DNA from: a virus
Virus record (IMG/VR): IMGVR_UViG_3300024346_000121
Location: 1 to 46,840 of that record
DNA length: 46,840 nt
Strand: one strand, 5' to 3'
The translations under genes and the position numbers were made by a program. Of this stretch, positions 1 through 46,840 are shown in pieces. The stretch's first letter is position 1; each line of letters opens with the position of its first letter. The notes below the pieces were generated by a model. That model searched no databases and had not been told where the DNA came from. It saw nothing but the letters and a program-made list of their open reading frames with translations.

Positions 1-60
1 AGTATAATCCTTAGATTATAAATTCTTGTAAGTCGTTGAAATCCTTGGAAGTCTCTATAG

Positions 61-205
61 AAATTCTAAAGAATTTTAAAAGTCTCTAAAGTCTCTACAG
101 TTTGGAAACTAGATTATAAATCTATGGAGATCTCTCAAGTCTTTTAAAGACTTTATAGCGTGGGCGATAGAATCTATGGATTCTTTGGAAGTCTTTTAAA
201 GACTT
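61..205. repeat. Cluster of inverted repeats and short iterons
   Basis: Perfect dyads are AAATTC/GAATTT (61-76), TAGATT/AATCTA (110-124), AAGTCTTT-T-AAAGACTT (137-153), AGAATC/GATTCT (169-184) and a second AAGTCTTT-T-AAAGACTT (189-205). AGTCTCTA occurs three times (50-57, 81-88, 90-97). AT-rich DNA makes some palindromes by chance, but an exactly repeated 17-bp dyad 52 bp apart is unlikely to be chance. Binding sites for a replication initiator, packaging protein or regulator are plausible. The function is not shown. Confidence 0.6.
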
Positions 206-208
206 TAT

Positions 209-238
209 GGGGCGGGCAGGTGACCATACCCCCACCCC
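209..238. other. GC-rich hairpin in an AT-rich region
   Basis: GGGGCGGG (209-216) can pair with CCCACCCC (231-238) with one internal mismatch, over a 14-base loop containing GGTGACC. It is flanked by TATATATA. This is the most GC-rich structure in the noncoding region and lies at the end of the terminal repeat. It could mark a packaging or replication-pause site, or a terminator for leftward RNA; none of these is proven. Confidence 0.4.
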
Positions 239-431
239 CCTATATATACACAATCATATACATTTTGACAGACTTTGGAGTGTCAACCAGTTAGCGCGGC
301 AGCTTTAAAGACTTTAAAGGTGAGAGTAAGTGCAGATAAGTGTACATAAAGAACACTTATATGTACATAAAAAAGGGGAGGAAGATGGTTGTGACTAAAA
401 TGACTATATAACCCCGGTGGGCTTAATATCT

Positions 432-460
432 ATTATAGGAGTAATATTGAATTCTGTCAA
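432..460 (-). promoter_or_regulatory. Perfect consensus sigma70 promoter, leftward
   Basis: On the minus strand TTGACA (460-455) is followed by a 17-base spacer and TATAAT (437-432), matching the bacterial consensus at every position. It points left, off the start of the window. On the circular map it would enter 46592 and run into the early genes starting at 46217, with a leader of roughly 800 bases. It is back-to-back with the rightward promoter at 565-593. Confidence 0.75.
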
Positions 461-564: not shown

Positions 565-593
565 TTGACAGTAATGCTTTTTAGGTATATACT
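565..593 (+). promoter_or_regulatory. Strong sigma70-type promoter for the late (rightward) arm
   Basis: TTGACA (565-570), a 17-base spacer and TATACT (588-593) match 11 of 12 consensus bases. Transcription would start near 600, giving a leader of only about 25 bases before terS, with no good Shine-Dalgarno sequence in it. The TTGACAGTA start resembles the other promoters of this genome. Confidence 0.75.
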
Positions 594-624: not shown

Positions 625-1023
625 ATGAGTCAGACTAAAGAATTAACAACCAAGCAGGAAGCTTTTCTCAACCACTTAGTTGAAGTAGGAGGTGATCCGC
701 GCAAAGCAGCAGAATTAGCTGGCTATGCAGATAGTAGTTATCCAGCGGTTGTTAAATCATTAAAGACGGAGATCTTGGATCTAGCTACAAATATCTTAGC
801 CCAGTCTGCACCTAAAGCAGCGATGAAGCTCGTAGACATTATGGATAGTGCAGAGCCAATTCCACAGGCCAATATGCGTATACAAGCAGCACAAACCATA
901 TTAGATCGTGTAGGTTTAGGGAAGACCGACCGTTTAGATGTAACGGTAAACACGGCAGGTGGTATTTTTGTATTACCCGCAAAACAAGAGACAGTGTTGG
1001 AGGGTGACTATGAGGAGGTCTAG
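625..1023 (+). CDS. terS: Terminase small subunit
   Basis: This 132-residue protein begins the packaging module and would recognise phage DNA and load the large subunit. Residues 8-45 (TTKQEAFLNHLVEVGGDPRK onward) resemble the N-terminal helix-turn-helix of phage TerS proteins. The next regions are helical, suited to ring assembly. It lies just before the terL block, the usual position. The start follows the promoter at 565-593 by about 30 bases and has no clear ribosome binding site, which is odd for the first gene of a long operon. The assignment rests on the N-terminal motif, size and synteny. Confidence 0.8.
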   Translation: MSQTKELTTKQEAFLNHLVEVGGDPRKAAELAGYADSSYPAVVKSLKTEILDLATNILAQSAPKAAMKLVDIMDSAEPIPQANMRIQAAQTILDRVGLGKTDRLDVTVNTAGGIFVLPAKQETVLEGDYEEV

Positions 1024-1234
1024 TAGCACAATTCCTTTTGGTTATGAGTTAAACGAAAACAACCCAGAGTTGTTGATAGAAGTACCCGAACAATTAGAAG
1101 AGCTTGATAAGATGATTGATATGATCAAGCAAAGAACTTTAAGCCTACGAGAAGCGTCATTGTTTTTAGAACATAAAACAGGAAGAGCAATCTCCCACAT
1201 GGGTTTAAAAAAGATAGCAGATAAAAGACAATGA
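1010..1234 (+). CDS. Small conserved-type protein between terS and terL
   Basis: A 74-residue, mostly helical charged protein of unknown function. I chose ATG 1010 over a longer frame because GGAGG lies 7 bases upstream. It overlaps the end of terS by 14 bases and its stop overlaps the terL start (ATGA), so all three are translationally coupled. The C-terminal part (SLREASLFLEHKTGRAIS, then GLKKIADKR) looks like a helix-turn-helix. The position suggests a packaging accessory role; that is inference. Confidence 0.75.
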   Translation: MRRSSSTIPFGYELNENNPELLIEVPEQLEELDKMIDMIKQRTLSLREASLFLEHKTGRAISHMGLKKIADKRQ

Positions 1235-2916
1235 AAGATTGGGAAGTTAATCCCGACAATTATGCAAAGGACGATACTGGAGAGTTTATACTAAAGGTTG
1301 ATGGGACTCCGCGCAAAAAGTCAGGAAGAGCTAAAGGATCTAAGGGAAGAGGATATACATATCATTCTCAAACTAAAGCTAAAATGGCTGCAAAGAAACA
1401 AGTAAAAGAAAAAGAAAAGAAACTTAAAGCAGCACAGAATAAAGTCGATAGTTATAAAAAGGCTATCAGTAGCACCAAGAAAACTTTAAATAAATTAGAC
1501 AACAAAGAATCTTCTATCGAAGGTAAGATAATAGAAGATGTACAGTTAGACAGTTTACCTAGTGCATTAGCTCAAGAAGCTACAGATGATGTTATCTTTA
1601 AGGCTAACGAAGGGCCACAAGAAGACTTCCTTGCAGCGGGTGAAACAGACGTTCTGTACGGAGGAGCAGCCGGAGGTGGTAAATCCTACGCGATGCTCGT
1701 AGACCCTCTTAGATACGCTCACAGGGCGGCTCACAGGGGTTTGATTATTAGACGGTCTATGCCGGAACTCCGCGAGTTAATAGACAAGTCTAGAGAGTTA
1801 TATCCTAAAGCTTTTCCGGGATGTAAGTATAAAGAAGTAGAAAAGCTTTGGACGTTTCCAAGCGGAGCTAAAATAGAGTTTGGATTCCTTGAGCGTGATG
1901 CGGATGTTTACCGCTATCAGGGTCAAGCATATAGTTGGATAGGTTTTGATGAAATTACACACCTACCTACAGAATTTGCTTGGAATTACTTAGCATCACG
2001 ATTACGTACTACTGATCCTGAAATTGAAGTATATATGCGCTGCACAGCAAATCCGGGGGGTGCGGGAGCAACATGGGTTAAAAAGCGTTATATTGATGTA
2101 GCTCCACCCAACAGTTCTTTTTTAGGTAATGATGGATTAACCAGAAAGTTCATACCAGCACGATTACAAGACAATCCTTTTCTAGCAACAGATGGTAGAT
2201 ATGAAAAGATGCTTCAGGCTTTGCCGCCTACACAGCGTCAACAACTGTTAGAAGGGAATTGGGATGTTGCCGAAGGTGCAGCATTCACAGAGTTTAATCC
2301 AATGAATCATGTAATAACTCCTTTTGAGATTCCGTTACATTGGGAACGTGCAAAAGGAATTGACTATGGATATGCTTCAGAAAGTGCATGTGTATGGGGT
2401 ACAGTTGATCCTAGTGATGGAACTTTAATTATATATAGAGAACTATATAAAAAAGGTCTTTTAGGTACAGAGTTAGCTGATATGCTAATGAACATGGAAC
2501 TAGAAGATCCTACAAGTGTTGCGGGAGTTTTAGACACAGCTTGCTGGAGTCGCACCGGAACAACAGGCCCGACAGTCGGAGAAACTCTTCAACGAGCAGG
2601 ACATAAGTTAAGAAGAGCAGATAAGAACCGAATACAGGGCAAAATACAGATCCATGAATACTTGAAGTTGCAGCCAAGCGGTAGGCCACGCATTCAAATA
2701 TTTAATACTTGCCCGAACCTGATACGCGAACTACAAAGTATTCCTCTGGATAAAACAAATCCTGAAGATGTTAATACACATGCTCCTGATCACGCATATG
2801 ATGCTTTAAGATACTTGATCATGTCTAGACCTCGTATAAACGATACTTTACAACAGATGCGACAGTTTCAACGAGAACAACATTTCAGACCTTTAGACAC
2901 AACTTTTGGATACTAA
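1231..2916 (+). CDS. terL: Terminase large subunit (ATPase-nuclease)
   Basis: This 561-residue packaging motor translocates DNA into the prohead and cuts it. The ATPase has Walker A GGAAGGGKS at 144-152, Walker B WIGFDE at 236-241 and a coupling motif CTANPGG at 271-277. The C-terminal RNase H-like nuclease shows acidic residues at D378 (GIDYG), D435 (VLDTA) and D520/D524 (HAPDHAYDALRY). Residues 20-100 are an unusual Lys-rich basic and coiled-coil extension that classical TerL proteins lack, but which I associate with marine phage terminases. The start overlaps the previous gene by 4 bases. Confidence 0.97.
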   Translation: MKDWEVNPDNYAKDDTGEFILKVDGTPRKKSGRAKGSKGRGYTYHSQTKAKMAAKKQVKEKEKKLKAAQNKVDSYKKAISSTKKTLNKLDNKESSIEGKIIEDVQLDSLPSALAQEATDDVIFKANEGPQEDFLAAGETDVLYGGAAGGGKSYAMLVDPLRYAHRAAHRGLIIRRSMPELRELIDKSRELYPKAFPGCKYKEVEKLWTFPSGAKIEFGFLERDADVYRYQGQAYSWIGFDEITHLPTEFAWNYLASRLRTTDPEIEVYMRCTANPGGAGATWVKKRYIDVAPPNSSFLGNDGLTRKFIPARLQDNPFLATDGRYEKMLQALPPTQRQQLLEGNWDVAEGAAFTEFNPMNHVITPFEIPLHWERAKGIDYGYASESACVWGTVDPSDGTLIIYRELYKKGLLGTELADMLMNMELEDPTSVAGVLDTACWSRTGTTGPTVGETLQRAGHKLRRADKNRIQGKIQIHEYLKLQPSGRPRIQIFNTCPNLIRELQSIPLDKTNPEDVNTHAPDHAYDALRYLIMSRPRINDTLQQMRQFQREQHFRPLDTTFGY

Positions 2917-22579: not shown

Positions 22580-25500
22580 ATGGATGTTGATGTAAAAAAC
22601 ACAGCCGAAGAAGCAGCCGCTAAAGCAATAGAAGCTGCTAAAGAATCTGAAACTTTAGCAGATCCTATTGCTGTACCCGAACCTGAAGAAGATGCAAAAT
22701 CAACAGGAGTCGGAACAGATATTTTAAGAGTGCTTGCAGACACAAGAGAAAATTTAGAGCCTTTAAATGTTTTGTACGGTGCAAGAATTTTAGCAGAAGA
22801 TGTAAAACAACTTTTAGGTTTGGACAGTAAATCATCAGAGTTAGAAGCACAACAGCAAGCATTTAAAAAATTCTTTCGTGATAATCCTATAAGTGGTTTT
22901 GATCAGCTTTTAAACGCATTTAATAAAACTGATGATATATATACGCCTGAAGGAGATGTTAAACCTACTGAAACTACAGCAGGGGCTGTTGCAGAGTTTG
23001 TTCCTTATGTAATTGGAGGCACAAAAGTATATAAAGAATTAGGTGAACGCGGATCAAAGTATATAAGGGGCCTAGCAGCAGGTGCAGTTACTGATGCTGT
23101 TTTAAGTGATGTTGAAGACGGAACACTTGCTGATGTAGTTGGTGAATATTTTCCAGAGACTCAATCTAATGTTATTATAGAGTATATGTCTTCAAATGAA
23201 AATGATTCTAAGTTAAAAGCAAAAAGTAAAGTGGTGCTGGAAGGTGCAGTCATTGGCGGTGCTATTGATATTGTACTAACAACTCCTAAAATATTAAAAT
23301 ATTTTGGTATTGGAGCTATTGAAAGTGTTAAATATTTAAGTAGGAAAAGTAAGCAGCTATATGGTAAGCCTGTAGAACAATTAGAGTTAGAAGAAAAAGC
23401 TGATGTAATGTTAGAAGTTTTAGAAGAAGCTAAAATTAATACACAGTTTAAGCAACAAAGTCAGGTAACAGATGTACAACTTACTGAAACTCCTGAAGGT
23501 TCAGCACAGGTTGCATTGCAGAATTCTAGCAAGTTACACAGATTCGTGAATAGATTTTTTACAACGCGAGGATATTTTACGCCTAAAGGATATAACGCTT
23601 TTGAAGATTCAGAATATGCTAAAAGACAAACTATTGCTAAAGCAGAGAACATTGCGTTAAGACTTCAACAATCTATAGATGAAATGGCTGAGTCTACTGA
23701 TCAAGAAGAAGTAATTGAAACTATAAATAAACTTTTTACTCAAGATTTAAAATGGTTAAAAGGCACTAAAGAAGATAAGATTATTGATCTTGCAGACAAA
23801 TATAATTTAACTGATGTTCAAGCAGAAGAGTTTTTGAATGCTAGAGAATTAATTGATGATATGTCTAATGAACTTATAGGTTCTACTTCTGTTAGTGATT
23901 CTTTAAAAGAAACAATTCAAGAAAACGTAGGAGAATATATCCGAAGATCTTACCGTCTTTTTGAAGATTCGGGATATGTTCCAACTCCTGAAGTTCAAAA
24001 AGATGCAACAGATTATATTTATAGAAATATTTTAGACAACAAGCCAGATATTTCTGAAGCTTTTGCTTATCAAGAAGCTGTTGATACTGTAAAAGAAATT
24101 TTAAAGCAGGGCGACCAAGCAGAATTTTCTGATTATTTTAGTAATCTTAAAAAGATAAATAAAGATATACTAAAGAAACAAGAAACTATACCTTTAGAAA
24201 TTAGAAGGTTGATGGGCGAAGTTGAACAACCTTCTGAAAATATTATCTTAACTGTTTCAAAAATGACAAACCTTGTAAACAGTACAAAGTTTTACAACAA
24301 CTTAGAGCAGCTAGGTCATTCTGGTGGATATATATTTAGAAAAGGTGAGCCTCGTCCAGAAGGGTACGACACAAAAATAGCAGGGACTAACTCTAAACTA
24401 GATGGTCAATTTACAACTCCTGAAATATTTGACGAGCTTCAAAATAACACTTCTCACTTTTTTACAAACGGGGGTTCAAAATATTATAAAGAGTTTTTAA
24501 GTTTTAAAGGACAAGCGCAAAAATTAAAAACTGTTTACAGCCACATGACACATATTCGTAACTTGACAGGCGGTATGCAGTTTGGTTTTGCTAATGGAGT
24601 AAATCCTTTTGGTGGAGGAGCAAACGAAACTAGAAAAGTTTTACTAGATTCTATTTTAAAACGTGGAGATAAATCATTTAATAACACGTATGAAAAATAC
24701 TTACGACTAGGAATTATTAATACTAACGTCAGAGTAAATGAGTTTAGAGCAATTTTAGAATCTGGATATGAAACAAATATAGACGGCTTTCAAAAGAAAG
24801 TAGGTTCTAGTTTAGATAAGATAGGTTTAACTAAAAATAGACGCGAGTTTTTTGACAATCTTTATGTTGCAACAGATGATTTTTATAAAATAAATTATTT
24901 TAATCAAGAGTTAAGCTTGCTTCAAAAAGCATATCCTGATGTGGCCCCAGACGTTTTAGAAGAGCAAGCTGCAAACATTGTTCGTAATACAATGCCAAAC
25001 TATGATCGTGTTCCTAAAGGCGTAAAATCTTTAAGGCAGCTTCCTGTCGGTAGTTTTTTCTCATTCCCAGCAGAAATAATTAGAACCTCTGCCCACATTG
25101 CTAGGCAATCAGCTAAAGAAATGCAATCTACTAATCCTCTTATACGAGACAGAGGATTAAAAAGAATGGCAGGATTTACTGTTACAACAATGGCGTTTGG
25201 TCAAGTAGCCGACATGTCTGCAAAACTAGCAGGGTTTAACGAAGAAGAACAGAAGGCTATTGCAATATTGAGCGAAACTCCTTGGTCAAATACTGCTCCG
25301 CGCAATATTGTAAAAATAGATGGTAAGATATACACCAACGATACGCAATACATTGACTCATACAGTGCTTTAAAAGATCCTTTACGTTCTGCGGCTTACG
25401 CATGGAGTAAAGGAGAAATAAACGAAGACGAGTTTGAAATAAAAGTTTTAGATTCTACTGCGGCTTTCGCTTATAGCTTTTTTAAACCATATATTGATGA

Positions 25501-28288
25501 AGCTATTTTAACGTCTGCTATTACAGATGTAACTTTAGCTGCTTTAAATGAAGATGGAAGAACTCCTAACGGTAAAGAAATATTTACCCCCGGTCTTACT
25601 GTTGCAGAAAAATCTGCAAATGTTTTGCAACATTTAGGAAAAACTTTAGTTCCCGGATCTGCGTTAAGTATTAAAAGTTTAATAGACACGATGAATGAAA
25701 AACCAAATAGAACTACAGGTAAGACTAAATCTAAACCTGCTGAACTTGTTGCAAACATGACAGGAGTAAAGTTTACAGAAGTAGATATTGAAAGTGCTAT
25801 TAAGTTTGCTGTTTCTGATTTTAAAAGAGACTCTAGTTTGTCTATAACTACAGGAATAAACTTTGAACGCAATTCTGATGAAGTTATTAAAAGATATAAG
25901 CAACAACAAAAAGTTCGTTTAAAGTCTTATAAAGAGCTTTATAGAACTTTAAAAGCTGCTGAATATCTTATAGATGAAGATGAAATGTATAGTTTTGCTT
26001 TAGAAAACGGACTGAGCAGAAAAGATTTAGCCGCTATAAGCATGGGATATTTTAAACCTAGCAGACCACCGCAAAAAAGCACTGTGGCGTTAGAAGAAAA
26101 AACTCCTAATGTAACAAGCACAAAGCAAGCAATTAATGTTTCAGAAGAGCTTGAACAAGTATACCTAGATTTATGGGATATAAGGCTTAACGATCCTATT
26201 ACAGGTGAAAAGAAGGGCGATCAAGAAAGACTTCAAAAAGTTATGGGCGGTGTCGTAGACAAGCTTGTGCCTAATGCTCCTGAAAACCCTTCAGATAGAA
26301 TTAATAAGGTTACAGGGATGCCATATAATTTAGAGGCAGGTGCAGCTTATTTAGAAGAGTCCGATCCTATTAGATCTTTAGTTATGGCTGCTGGAGGAAG
26401 AGTACGTAAAAGCAGTGGCGGTGAGATGGTGGCTAACCTTGTAGGCATCTCTAAAGAAGATCTTGAGTGGGCTAAAAGTCAAGACAAGCGTTATAGCAAA
26501 TCTGAAGAACTAGACGGTAAAGGAGATGCAGCCCGTCACCTTGCTTTAGGTTGGATTACTCAAAGAGCAGAGAATCCTGATCTAGCATTGAAGGCTGCAA
26601 ACTTCCGCGAAAACTTGAGCCTTAGACGTTTAGATAAGCCAATGGATCAACACAACAACAATCTAGGGGCTACTATTAAGGCTAATACTTTTAAAGAAGC
26701 AGAAGCTCAGATAGATAAACTCATTGCTGACAAAGAAGCTATGTACATGACACCCTCAGAAAGTGATCGAATGCGTGGGTATAGTAAAGGCAGTCTTGTT
26801 GCCAAGATGTTTTTTGCGCCTAAAAAATCATCAGGGCTGTATAGTGCCGCAGAAAAAGCTTCTCAGAAACTTGAAGGTTCTAAACCCAGAGAAGGTCAAG
26901 CATTTTTAAATGAAATTAAAAAAGATCCAGATGTTACTGATGAAGAATTAAAGTGGACAAAAGCTAATGAAAAGTTTGCTAACGATAAGAAGGTAACAAA
27001 AGAAGAAGTTCAGGAATTTTTTAAAGAAAATGATTTTGACTTTGATGTTGCAGTAGGACGCTCTGATGTTGATAGACCAGATGCAGATTTTAAAGTTCAG
27101 CCTGAACATTTAAATTATTCATTTGAAGGTGAGAATACTCAAAATTATCGTGAACTTGTACTTTCTATTCCAGACAAATATAAGAAAGTAGATCTTGATT
27201 TTGAATATGAGGATCACCATCCGCAAGCTAAAAATCAATTTGCTCATGTTCGTTTATCTGATATACAGCAAACTGATGATGCGTTTAATACAACTTTATT
27301 GGTTGATGAAATACAATCAGACGCACATCAAAGAGCAACTGGAAAAAGCGGGAAAGGCTACTATACTATAGAAGATGAAAAACTATTAAAGGAAAAGAAA
27401 AAAGAAATAACTTATACAAACGATTTTATTAAACTGAGTAATGAAAAAGAGAACCTTGTAGATAAGCTTGATCAACTAGACGATATGATAGATGATGAAA
27501 TTATAACAGAAGCAGAATATATACAAAGACGAGATACTCTTCAAACCCGAATAGGTGAGGTTAATAAAGATTTAGCTTCAGCAGACGACATGCTTGCTAA
27601 AGAAGATGAATTTTTAGATTTAATAATGAAACTTGAAACCAAAACTCCAGAACTTCCGCTTAAACAAGGAAAGCAATGGGGTGCTGCGGGTCTACGCCAA
27701 GCTATGAAAGTAGCAGCAGAAGAAGGCTATGATCAAGTTGCTTTGACTACTGGTCAACTACAAGCTATAAGAAATAATAAGATAGGTAATATTAAAGAAG
27801 CTTTATTGTTTAAAAAACAAGACATAAAAACTGGAGAGCCTAGAGGTTGGGCAATACAAGGTGTTAATACAGACGACGAGTTTAATGATTTTTTAGTTGT
27901 CTTTGATACTTTTGAAGAAGCTGTTCAAAAACTACCTAAAGTTCTTGGAAAAGAAAATGCAGAAAAATTACTTGCTTCAACCCCTGATGATGCAGGAGAA
28001 TATGCACTTAAACAACCAATGACCATGAAGATGGGTGGTCAGAAGTACATAGATTTTTATGATGGTACTTTACAAAAAATATGGAAACGAGACTTTGCTG
28101 ACAAATACGATGTTGATATTGAGATGATTAAATATAATCAAGGAGATAAAACTGTAGAACTTCCCACTCTTAAAATAACTGATAAGATGCGAGAAGATAT
28201 TCTTAAAGGTTTGAAAATGTTTGTATCAGGTGGACTCGTAGAAGAAACATTACACAATTTAAAAGGAGCAAGGACAGCTAATGACTGA
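22580..28288 (+). CDS. Giant multidomain (polyvalent-type) internal virion protein
   Basis: A 1902-residue protein with AAGGA upstream of ATG. Residues 1-1270 look like ejected core-protein sequence with Gly-rich hydrophobic patches (near 215-240, 820-870). About 1315-1360 holds GDAARHLALGW and MDQHNNNLG, resembling an uncharacterised His-rich domain I recall as DUF6973. About 1520-1880 shows NYRELVLSIP, LVDEIQSDAHQ, AMKVAAEEGYDQVALTTGQ and IDFYDGTLQKIWKR, the pattern of domains in phage polyvalent proteins. It may carry effectors into the host with the genome. No lytic transglycosylase motif is evident. It overlaps the endolysin start by 8 bases. Confidence 0.8.
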   Translation: MDVDVKNTAEEAAAKAIEAAKESETLADPIAVPEPEEDAKSTGVGTDILRVLADTRENLEPLNVLYGARILAEDVKQLLGLDSKSSELEAQQQAFKKFFRDNPISGFDQLLNAFNKTDDIYTPEGDVKPTETTAGAVAEFVPYVIGGTKVYKELGERGSKYIRGLAAGAVTDAVLSDVEDGTLADVVGEYFPETQSNVIIEYMSSNENDSKLKAKSKVVLEGAVIGGAIDIVLTTPKILKYFGIGAIESVKYLSRKSKQLYGKPVEQLELEEKADVMLEVLEEAKINTQFKQQSQVTDVQLTETPEGSAQVALQNSSKLHRFVNRFFTTRGYFTPKGYNAFEDSEYAKRQTIAKAENIALRLQQSIDEMAESTDQEEVIETINKLFTQDLKWLKGTKEDKIIDLADKYNLTDVQAEEFLNARELIDDMSNELIGSTSVSDSLKETIQENVGEYIRRSYRLFEDSGYVPTPEVQKDATDYIYRNILDNKPDISEAFAYQEAVDTVKEILKQGDQAEFSDYFSNLKKINKDILKKQETIPLEIRRLMGEVEQPSENIILTVSKMTNLVNSTKFYNNLEQLGHSGGYIFRKGEPRPEGYDTKIAGTNSKLDGQFTTPEIFDELQNNTSHFFTNGGSKYYKEFLSFKGQAQKLKTVYSHMTHIRNLTGGMQFGFANGVNPFGGGANETRKVLLDSILKRGDKSFNNTYEKYLRLGIINTNVRVNEFRAILESGYETNIDGFQKKVGSSLDKIGLTKNRREFFDNLYVATDDFYKINYFNQELSLLQKAYPDVAPDVLEEQAANIVRNTMPNYDRVPKGVKSLRQLPVGSFFSFPAEIIRTSAHIARQSAKEMQSTNPLIRDRGLKRMAGFTVTTMAFGQVADMSAKLAGFNEEEQKAIAILSETPWSNTAPRNIVKIDGKIYTNDTQYIDSYSALKDPLRSAAYAWSKGEINEDEFEIKVLDSTAAFAYSFFKPYIDEAILTSAITDVTLAALNEDGRTPNGKEIFTPGLTVAEKSANVLQHLGKTLVPGSALSIKSLIDTMNEKPNRTTGKTKSKPAELVANMTGVKFTEVDIESAIKFAVSDFKRDSSLSITTGINFERNSDEVIKRYKQQQKVRLKSYKELYRTLKAAEYLIDEDEMYSFALENGLSRKDLAAISMGYFKPSRPPQKSTVALEEKTPNVTSTKQAINVSEELEQVYLDLWDIRLNDPITGEKKGDQERLQKVMGGVVDKLVPNAPENPSDRINKVTGMPYNLEAGAAYLEESDPIRSLVMAAGGRVRKSSGGEMVANLVGISKEDLEWAKSQDKRYSKSEELDGKGDAARHLALGWITQRAENPDLALKAANFRENLSLRRLDKPMDQHNNNLGATIKANTFKEAEAQIDKLIADKEAMYMTPSESDRMRGYSKGSLVAKMFFAPKKSSGLYSAAEKASQKLEGSKPREGQAFLNEIKKDPDVTDEELKWTKANEKFANDKKVTKEEVQEFFKENDFDFDVAVGRSDVDRPDADFKVQPEHLNYSFEGENTQNYRELVLSIPDKYKKVDLDFEYEDHHPQAKNQFAHVRLSDIQQTDDAFNTTLLVDEIQSDAHQRATGKSGKGYYTIEDEKLLKEKKKEITYTNDFIKLSNEKENLVDKLDQLDDMIDDEIITEAEYIQRRDTLQTRIGEVNKDLASADDMLAKEDEFLDLIMKLETKTPELPLKQGKQWGAAGLRQAMKVAAEEGYDQVALTTGQLQAIRNNKIGNIKEALLFKKQDIKTGEPRGWAIQGVNTDDEFNDFLVVFDTFEEAVQKLPKVLGKENAEKLLASTPDDAGEYALKQPMTMKMGGQKYIDFYDGTLQKIWKRDFADKYDVDIEMIKYNQGDKTVELPTLKITDKMREDILKGLKMFVSGGLVEETLHNLKGARTAND

Positions 28289-44116: not shown

Positions 44117-44127
44117 AATATCTCTCC

Positions 44128-44151
44128 AAAAAAATGCCCTCCGAAGAGGGC
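44128..44151 (-). terminator. Intrinsic terminator with UUCG-type loop, copy 1
   Basis: On the minus strand GCCCTC, loop TTCG, GAGGGC, then ATTTTTTT. The T-run is followed at once by GGAG, the ribosome binding site of the next gene. It closes the transcript after the gene ending at 44170. Confidence 0.88.
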
Positions 44152-44169
44152 TAAGAGGGGTGATAAACT

Positions 44170-44548: not shown

Positions 44549-44560
44549 TGTCAAACCTCC

Positions 44561-44584
44561 AAAAAAACCCCCTCCGAAGAGGGG
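44561..44584 (-). terminator. Intrinsic terminator with UUCG-type loop, copy 2
   Basis: On the minus strand CCCCTC, loop TTCG, GAGGGG, then GG and seven T. The same layout as copy 1: T-run directly joined to GGAGG of the next gene. A second 7-bp stem (44620-44626 with 44639-44645) precedes it. Confidence 0.88.
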
Positions 44585-44660
44585 TAAAGGACTGCTAGGG
44601 GAAATTAGTTAATTTATTGAAGCCTACTACTAACGTAATAGGCTTTATAAATTTACTATA

Positions 44661-45728: not shown

Positions 45729-46217
45729 TTATTTAGCCGCTTGTAAGATTTCAAGCATTGCATCCAGTTTAGAATCAATGTCAGAGACTTTAGTCTCAAG
45801 TGCAGTAATTCTATTATCCATCTTTTTAGCTACGCTATTTTGAGCCGGAGCAGTTTTCTTGACAGCCTTTGGCTTTTTAGAATCTAAAGCCTCTTCAGCT
45901 TGCTGAACTGTCTGCTGTTTAGCTTTAGCTACTGGTTTAGCTTTAACTTTCTTAGCAGCCTTCGGCTTTTTAATCAGCTTCAAAATTTCCTTTGGAACAA
46001 GCTGATGCTCTCTGAAGTCAGTGACTTCGGCATGGGTCATGTAAGAATCTTGATCGCCATAGAATTTATTCAGAATGGCGTTAAACACTTTGGTCAAACC
46101 ATATCGCTCTGAAGGATTCTTGGCATGGATATTAGCAAAGTGACAAGCTACGCCATAGACTTGTTTAGCAGTAGCAATTTTGTTCGAGTCGATTTTTGCA
46201 AAATTAATGTGTGTCAT
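45729..46217 (-). CDS. First early protein: Lys/Ala-rich linker plus coiled coil
   Basis: A 162-residue protein from ATG 46217 (AGGTGAT 3-9 bases upstream); a longer frame to 46325 would run through the promoter. N-terminal 85 residues form a compact domain (KQVYGVACHFANIHAKNPSE, LTKVFNAILNKFYGDQDSYM), then an H1-like Lys/Ala linker (KKPKAAKKVKAKPVAKAKQQ), then a C-terminal coiled coil (MDNRITALETKVSDIDSKLD). As the first early gene it may bind DNA or reprogram the host. Confidence 0.72.
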   Translation of the reverse strand: MTHINFAKIDSNKIATAKQVYGVACHFANIHAKNPSERYGLTKVFNAILNKFYGDQDSYMTHAEVTDFREHQLVPKEILKLIKKPKAAKKVKAKPVAKAKQQTVQQAEEALDSKKPKAVKKTAPAQNSVAKKMDNRITALETKVSDIDSKLDAMLEILQAAK

Positions 46218-46269: not shown

Positions 46270-46315
46270 GTTTTGACGTTTTCCAAGCTACACAGATCTG
46301 GTTTTGCCGTCAACA
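46270..46315 (-). promoter_or_regulatory. Repeated early promoter element, copy 2
   Basis: Minus-strand TTGACG (46313-46308), 17-base spacer, TAGCTT (46290-46285). It shares a 23-bp identical block with 43854-43876 and the same -35 layout. It would start transcription near 46278, about 60 bases before the first early gene. Confidence 0.7.
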
Positions 46316-46413
46316 TCTTTTTCACGCACTCTTTTTCCTACGCATTATGCGTATTAAAACAGGTGAAAAAAGTAAAATTGCTCATTTCTGGGGTCAAAGT
46401 TCTTTAGGTGTTA

Positions 46414-46448
46414 GGAATATTATTCCCATGTATTAGGAATATCATTCC
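46414..46448. promoter_or_regulatory. Pair of 13-bp operator-like dyads, 22 bp apart
   Basis: TTAGGAATATTATTCC and TTAGGAATATCATTCC carry the same dyad GGAAT(A/-)...ATTCC with centres 22 bp apart, two helical turns. This is a classical layout for cooperative binding by a dimeric regulator or initiator. Confidence 0.55.
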
Positions 46449-46545
46449 GACCTGTGCAGGATTAGTCTATACCATAGACTGTATGTGTGTGAAGACTTTT
46501 AAAGTCTTTGAGGATGTAAAAATGGCTGGGTCTTTTTCGCCAATT

Positions 46546-46592: not shown

Positions 46593-46840
46593 AGTATAAT
46601 CCTTAGATTATAAATTCTTGTAAGTCGTTGAAATCCTTGGAAGTCTCTATAGAAATTCTAAAGAATTTTAAAAGTCTCTAAAGTCTCTACAGTTTGGAAA
46701 CTAGATTATAAATCTATGGAGATCTCTCAAGTCTTTTAAAGACTTTATAGCGTGGGCGATAGAATCTATTGATTCTTTGGAAGTCTTTTAAAGACTTTAT
46801 GGGGCGGGCAGGTGACCATACCCCCACCCCCCTATATATA
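46593..46840. repeat. Right copy of 248-bp direct repeat
   Basis: This copy is identical to bases 1-248 except T46770 in place of G178. It runs exactly to the window end, as expected when a circular or terminally redundant molecule is linearised with overlap. The sequence alone cannot tell a packaged terminal repeat from an assembly overlap; the mismatch points to population variation or an error at a contig end. Confidence 0.95.

What the first reader, a model, noticed from the sequence alone, without database searches (positions are those of the whole stretch)
46340..46508. Dyad-dense region across the map junction: candidate origin
In the circular map about 460 bp (46340 to 205) contain at least ten perfect dyads of 5-8 bp arms, including AAGTCTTT-T-AAAGACTT twice and its relative AAGACTTT-T-AAAGTCTT, plus AGTCTCTA iterons. 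Arms recur in related form, which chance AT-richness does not readily give. No gene lies here. A replication origin or partition/packaging centre is a reasonable guess.
Basis: partly seen in the sequence, partly recalled or inferred. Interest (0 to 1): 0.65.

Follow-up and report, generated by a model that had tools for sequence, protein, structure and literature searches.

The report
Phage genome-end and packaging site
The palindrome-rich stretch is real and lies beside a conserved DNA site where an abundant group of marine viruses probably cuts and starts packing its genome, so it marks the end of the viral chromosome rather than, on present evidence, its replication origin.

Summary
The junction region has 10 perfect dyads with arms of 6 or more (1.4 expected; 0 of 500 shuffles) and is the densest in the genome. 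The record carries a 248-bp terminal repeat, and the phage belongs to the HTVC103P/HMO-2011 packaging-module group. The dyads fall into homologous slots in about half of the relatives, with arms that covary and no GU-over-AC bias, so they look like DNA palindromes rather than RNA.

The dyads are not the conserved heart. That is an undescribed ~115-bp site at 209-322: GGGCAGGTGaCCAT, a G/C tract, TATATATA|CACAATC..TATACATTTTG..TGTaaACCAG. It occurs in 71 of 80 relatives, and diverged versions are found in isolates. This record, two other contigs and three Rhizobium phage records break within a few bases of the same point. Reads of the related phage phiM6 gave a packaging start about 90 bp from the equivalent point. 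The site changes together with the DNA-binding half of the small terminase. I read it as the terminase recognition and cleavage site. A perfect sigma-70 promoter for the early arm sits across the cut from its genes. The palindromes' function remains open.

The parts
1..248 (.). left copy of the 248-bp terminal repeat of the record
   Evidence: identical to 46593-46840 but for 178 G/T; left edge not supported by relatives
46593..46840 (.). right copy of the terminal repeat; its right end is the proposed cut TATATATA|CACAATC
46340..46508 (.). the finding's own box: four perfect dyads (46340, 46414, 46464, 46492)
   Evidence: replaced by other palindromes in close relative L151
46546..46558 (.). 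CCTCC-TTC-GGAGG hairpin, conserved in many relatives
46595..46612 (.). dyad slot A, TATAATC-CTTA-GATTATA
   Evidence: homologous slot with covarying arms
46653..46668 (.). dyad slot B, AAATTCT-AA-AGAATTT
46691..46702 (.). dyad slot C, AGTTT-GG-AAACT (CTAGTTnnGTAAACTAG in relatives)
46729..46745 (.). dyad slot D, AAGTCTTT-T-AAAGACTT (also at 137-153)
46781..46797 (.). dyad slot E, AAGTCTTT-T-AAAGACTT (also at 189-205)
209..227 (+). core site, left element GGGGCGGGCAGGTGACCAT
228..240 (+). core site, switching G/C tract ACCCCCACCCCCC
241..248 (+). core site TATATATA; proposed terminase cut after 248
   Evidence: same break in three Rhizobium phage records and near it in two other contigs
249..322 (+). 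core site, right element CACAATC..TATACATTTTG-N13-TGTCAACCAG-TTAGCGCGGCAG-CTTTAAAGACTTTAAAG; proposed TerS-binding side
432..460 (-). leftward sigma-70 promoter TTGACA-17-TATAAT (12/12) pointing through core and array to the early genes
   Evidence: 48 of 48 sequences at 11/12 or better
565..593 (+). rightward sigma-70 promoter TTGACA-17-TATACT (11/12) for terS and the late arm
   Evidence: 44 of 48
625..1023 (+). terS, small terminase subunit
   Evidence: phrog_2538; N-half covaries with the core site
1231..2916 (+). terL, large terminase subunit
   Evidence: phrog_979, 64-67% identical to HTVC103P-type TerL
45729..46217 (-). first gene of the right arm: small basic protein with predicted C-terminal coiled coil; co-occurs with the dyad array

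Best explanation
The junction is the genome end and packaging region of a two-armed marine podophage. A conserved site at 209-322 is recognised by the small terminase (TerS). Terminase then cuts concatemeric DNA after the TATATATA that follows the G/C tract (248|249). That cut starts packaging rightwards through terS and terL, and it fixes the end at which this record stops. The left half (GGGCAGGTGaCCAT, G/C tract, TATATA) acts like the cut-side element and the right half (CACAATC to CTTTAAAG) like the TerS-binding element, comparable in layout to lambda cosQ-cosN-cosB or to a pac site. The palindrome array to the left is a separate part that travels with the early arm. I infer that it is a set of structure-selected DNA palindromes in the early leader/terminal segment, probably bound by a protein or aiding end handling; this step is not shown. 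Shown: conservation, coincident ends, co-inheritance with the TerS N-half, promoter positions. Inferred: recognition, cleavage, polarity.
For: Core in 71 of 80 TerL relatives and, by profile, at the arm junction of HTVC103P, HTVC104P, CRP-1, HMO-2011 and MW202701 (HTVC115P, HTVC033P and CRP-235 read by eye). This record ends at TATATATA|CACAATC; RHph_N3_13, I3_11 and N3_19 records break within 2 bp of the equivalent base (profile E 6e-4 and 0.019); contigs L180 and L185 stop at the same place, the only 2 of 87 known right ends within 466 bp. phiM6 reads: PhageTerm pac start about 90 bp away (PMC6256558). Core covaries with the TerS N-half beyond TerL (partial 0.286, 0/500), not with the C-half (-0.043); L008/L009 share 99.94% of terL but differ in core, array and TerS N-half, with the exchange point inside terS.
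Against: No read-level termini for this phage. phiM6 site match is not significant by profile. How the Rhizobium record boundaries were set is not stated. TerS N-half lies next to the core, so linkage explains part of the covariation. In HMO-2011 and CRP-1 the site is kilobases from terS. Contigs could also stop because C-runs and TA repeats assemble badly, although most pass through. The role of the array is not established.
Confidence: 0.66

Rival explanations
1. Bidirectional replication origin. The dyads and AT-rich DNA unwind, possibly primed by the leftward transcript that crosses them, and forks leave along both arms.
For: GC-skew minimum at the junction; dyads and short repeats far above chance; leftward promoter reading through the array; the array travels with the right arm.
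Against: Skew is fully confounded with gene direction. The array is missing in about half of the relatives and changes at least 8 times on the TerL tree. No initiator was recognised. The universally kept part is the core, which goes with TerS.
Confidence: 0.15
2. Leader RNA or structured non-coding RNA: the dyads are hairpins of the ~800-nt leader of the early operon, acting in antitermination or stability.
For: Leftward 12/12 promoter upstream of core and array; folding well beyond shuffles; UUCG-type hairpin.
Against: No Rfam match. GU cells equal AC cells (19 and 19), so neither strand is favoured; both strands fold equally well.
Confidence: 0.15
3. Operator array: the dyads are dimer sites for a regulator, perhaps the early basic protein, that shuts off early transcription.
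For: Co-occurrence with the early gene (19 loci with it carry 6-12 dyads, 18 without average 1.8); AAGACTTTnAAAGTCTT recurs in sequence at several slots.
Against: Slots A, B and E change sequence freely while keeping symmetry. HMO-2011 and CRP-1 have arrays with unrelated early proteins. The early protein has no recognised DNA-binding fold.
Confidence: 0.2
4. Passive outcome: palindromes perfected by template switching at a recombination-prone end, and a terminal repeat that is an assembly overlap.
For: Perfect arms with equal GU and AC; wholesale replacement by other palindromes in L151; contig breaks are frequent in the region; the repeat has one mismatch.
Against: Slots A-E stay at the same places with conserved spacers in strongly diverged relatives. 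It does not explain the core site.
Confidence: 0.15

Closest known systems
pac site of Sinorhizobium phage phiM6 (HMO-2011 group, PMC6256558)
   Same: Junction of the two arms, upstream of terS, read-based packaging start, similar anatomy (GGCAGGGCCA, G-rich tract, TATA, TGTATACAC)
   Different: Predicted start is about 90 bp left of the equivalent cut; sequence match not significant by profile
lambda cos (cosQ-cosN-cosB)
   Same: Cut flanked by an element on one side and a TerS-binding side on the other (layout recalled from general knowledge)
   Different: No sequence relation tested; no cohesive ends shown; a switching G/C tract instead of a fixed nick sequence
T7- or N4-type direct terminal repeats
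   Same: Direct terminal repeat of a few hundred bp in this record; N4 likewise has two arms transcribed from the ends (recalled)
   Different: No other relative examined shows the repeat; no phage RNA polymerase was identified; phiM6 reads indicate pac

Membership tests
Terminase recognition/cleavage site (cos or pac) | Genome ends are made at or near it | tested here: inconclusive
   Record and contig ends coincide and phiM6 reads agree within ~90 bp; no reads for this phage
Terminase recognition/cleavage site (cos or pac) | Recognised by TerS | tested here: inconclusive
   Co-inherited with the TerS N-half; binding not testable here
Terminase recognition/cleavage site (cos or pac) | Conserved among phages that share the terminase | tested here: met
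   71 of 80 relatives and several isolates
cos type | Complementary single-strand ends of fixed length | not testable with these tools
   Needs end mapping
T7/N4-type direct terminal repeat | Same-length repeat at both ends in relatives | tested here: not met
   RHph and phiM6 records have none; other long contigs show only 127- or 90-bp exact overlaps elsewhere, or none
Replication origin | Replication starts there | not testable with these tools
   GC skew is confounded with gene direction
Known structured RNA family | Match to an Rfam model at its gathering score | tested here: not met
HTVC103P/HMO-2011-type packaging module phages | Homologous TerL, portal and capsid block | tested here: met
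   TerL 64-67% identical to HTVC103P/104P/115P, 44-49% to HMO-2011 and CRP phages; portal and capsid families

The most novel reading that the evidence does not exclude
In this widespread marine phage group the sole strong promoter of the early arm points off the end of the virion chromosome, so early genes can be expressed from it only after the ends are joined. A structure-selected palindrome array between the cut and the first gene takes part in that circularise-before-express step. The 14-bp G/C tract at the cut is a fast-switching specificity element.
Probability: 0.25. Interest if true: 0.7.

Novelty: new variant of a known kind. Interest (0 to 1): 0.55.

Why it matters
HMO-2011- and HTVC103P-type phages are reported as widespread and abundant in the ocean (PMC9038755, PMC8528129), yet the phage papers I found describe no packaging site for them beyond the PhageTerm call for phiM6. 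A defined, conserved site makes their termini, packaging mode and module exchange directly testable. It gives a natural zero point for maps that are now cut arbitrarily, and a sequence handle to look for satellites or transducing particles that borrow their packaging. The promoter placement across the cut is a concrete, unusual prediction about the order of early infection events.

Tried and rejected
Known RNA family: none. One-strand RNA structure: rejected as the sole driver because GU equals AC and both strands fold beyond shuffles. First core pattern had the wrong spacer and found nothing; corrected. Contig left ends as proof of the repeat's left edge: spread over 0-600 bp, no single base. 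Terminal repeats of other long contigs: 127 and 90 bp exact overlaps at other places, likely assembler overlaps. Core pattern in bacterial genomes: none. Core-site DNA in annotated phages by blastn: none; profiles and reading by eye were needed. Early protein: no Pfam family at cut-off, low-confidence model, no fold match, no homology to the first early genes of HMO-2011, CRP-1 or phiM6. Exact inversion of the G/C tract: rejected, the alleles are replacements rather than exact reverse complements.

Full report
WHAT WAS CHECKED. The window is one IMG/VR virus record of 46,840 bp. Counting the repeat once, 46340-205 holds 16 perfect dyads with arm 5 or more (shuffles 5.05), 10 with arm 6 or more (1.40) and 6 with arm 7 or more (0.34), never reached in 500 dinucleotide-preserving shuffles. 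The 500-bp windows starting around 46301-46451 are the densest in the genome.

WHOSE GENOME. TerL (1231-2916) is 64-67% identical to pelagiphages HTVC103P/104P/115P and 44-49% to HMO-2011-type phages. TerS, portal, capsid, tail and holin lie on the left arm; Pol A, primase-helicase, Cas4-like exonuclease and class II ribonucleotide reductase lie on the right arm. The two arms diverge from the junction and meet near 30 kb. PMC8528129 describes such uncultured relatives of HTVC103P-type phages with HMO-2011-type packaging modules.

THE DYAD ARRAY. In relatives that cross the junction, dyads occupy the same slots (A 46595, B 46653, C 46691, D 46729, E 46781) with conserved spacers while the arms change together. 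On a 13-sequence alignment 10 of 46 pairs have changes on both sides (shuffle mean 4.3, none of 500 as high), and sliding the partners lowers pairing from 89% to 27-62%. In the same helices G-U and A-C cells are equal, 19 each, and both strands fold well beyond shuffles, so selection, if any, is on double-stranded palindromes rather than on an RNA of one strand. The array is not universal. Loci with the early basic-protein gene (45729-46217) have 6-12 dyads per 400 bp and loci without it average 1.8. Its presence changes at least 8 times on a TerL tree. HMO-2011 and CRP-1 have arrays of their own (6 dyads against 0.7 expected), while HTVC103P/104P/115P/033P do not.

THE CORE SITE. What is conserved in nearly all relatives lies just right of the array, at 209-322: GGGCAGGTGaCCAT, a 13-15 bp G/C tract, TATATATAcACAATC, TATACATTTTG, a constant 13-bp spacer, TGTaaACCAG, WTAGCGCSGCAG, CTTTAAAGnCTTTAAAG. 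It was found in 71 of 80 TerL relatives. A profile picks out the junction of HTVC103P (E 0.0013), CRP-1 (0.0036), HTVC104P (0.014), HMO-2011 (0.035) and MW202701 (0.058); a second, spurious window hit at 13.4 kb also scores 0.058, so the last of these is at noise level. The HTVC115P, HTVC033P and CRP-235 versions were read by eye. In HMO-2011 and CRP-1 the site is at the divergence of the arms although terS is kilobases away.

WHY A GENOME END. This record ends at ...CCCCCCTATATATA| and the next base in the joined form is C of CACAATC. Three GenBank records of Rhizobium phages of the same group break at the same place...TTATA|TACACAATC (RHph_N3_13, I3_11) and ...TTATATA|CACA (N3_19). A wider profile finds the site across that boundary at E 6e-4 and 0.019. 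The paper that I take to be behind those records (PMC8245606) gives the assemblers but does not say how the boundaries were set. Of 87 contigs whose right end is known, two end within 466 bp of the site and both stop at the tract/TATA (L180, L185). For phiM6, which its authors place in the HMO-2011 marine group, PhageTerm on reads predicted a pac initiating cleavage, set as position 1 (PMC6256558). The equivalent of the cut lies about 90 bp to the right, inside a stretch with the same anatomy, although the profile match there is not significant.

WHY TERMINASE. L008 and L009 have 99.94% identical terL but different core, array and N-terminal half of TerS; their identity resumes in the middle of terS. 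Among pairs with terL differing by at most 5%, those whose core differs by 15% or more differ by 33% in the TerS N-half and 7.5% in the C-half; those with the same core differ by 0.3% and 0.7%. The core correlates with the TerS N-half beyond TerL (partial 0.286, 0 of 500 permutations) and not with the C-half (-0.043). Physical linkage contributes, but an exchange point inside terS that keeps site and N-terminal half together is what a recognition pair predicts; that the N-half is the DNA-binding half is general knowledge of small terminases, not tested here.

TWO ODDITIES. First, the G/C tract switches en bloc: L008 and L012 are ~99% identical on both sides but carry GGGGGGGTACTGGG and ACCCCCTCCCCCC. 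G/G, G/C, C/C and C/G forms exist, and polarity changes at least 5 times on the TerL tree. Second, a near-perfect sigma-70 promoter lies on the minus strand to the right of the cut (460-432, 12/12) in 48 of 48 sequences, with none of that strength on the array side. It points through the core and array to the early genes about 800 nt away. In a linear virion molecule cut at 248|249 that promoter is at the opposite end from its genes. If the end is real, early expression from it needs joined ends. This is inference. HMO-2011, CRP-1 and phiM6 lack that leftward promoter.

CONCLUSION. The dyads are real but flank, rather than constitute, the conserved element. Best reading: terminase recognition and cleavage site (0.66), with the palindrome array as a linked but separate part of unknown role. 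An origin is possible but unsupported beyond a confounded skew. The confidences given for the rivals that concern the array alone are not exclusive of the best explanation. Whether the phage is cos, pac or repeat type is open; the 248-bp repeat's left edge has no support and may be an assembly overlap.

Noticed in passing
228-240 and homologous positions in L008, L012, L053, L072, L013, L060: A 13-15 bp G/C tract at the proposed cut switches en bloc between C-type and G-type between near-identical phages (L008 and L012 are ~99% identical on both sides), at least 5 times on the TerL tree. Unexplained.
   Followed up: partly
432-460 (-): A perfect sigma-70 promoter for the early arm lies on the far side of the proposed genome end from its genes in all 48 sequences examined.
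   Followed up: partly
45729-46217 (-): Early small basic protein with a lysine/alanine-rich linker and predicted C-terminal coiled coil, no family match; present in all dyad-rich relatives of this clade that were long enough to show it, apart from one borderline locus (L070).
   Followed up: partly
L008 against L009, core to mid-terS: Near-identical terL joined to different right arms, with the exchange point in the middle of terS: module swapping at the genome end.
   Followed up: yes
L073, L065, L059, L042 between early gene and array: Long perfect hairpins such as TTAGTATCTCCATAACC-TTTTA-TAGGTTATGGAGATACTAA, absent from the window.
   Followed up: no
44124-44154 and 44557-44587: A 31-bp near-repeat within the early arm, also matched by relatives.
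   Followed up: no
22580-28288 (+): 1902-aa late protein with only a sub-threshold DUF6973 match; function unknown.
   Followed up: no
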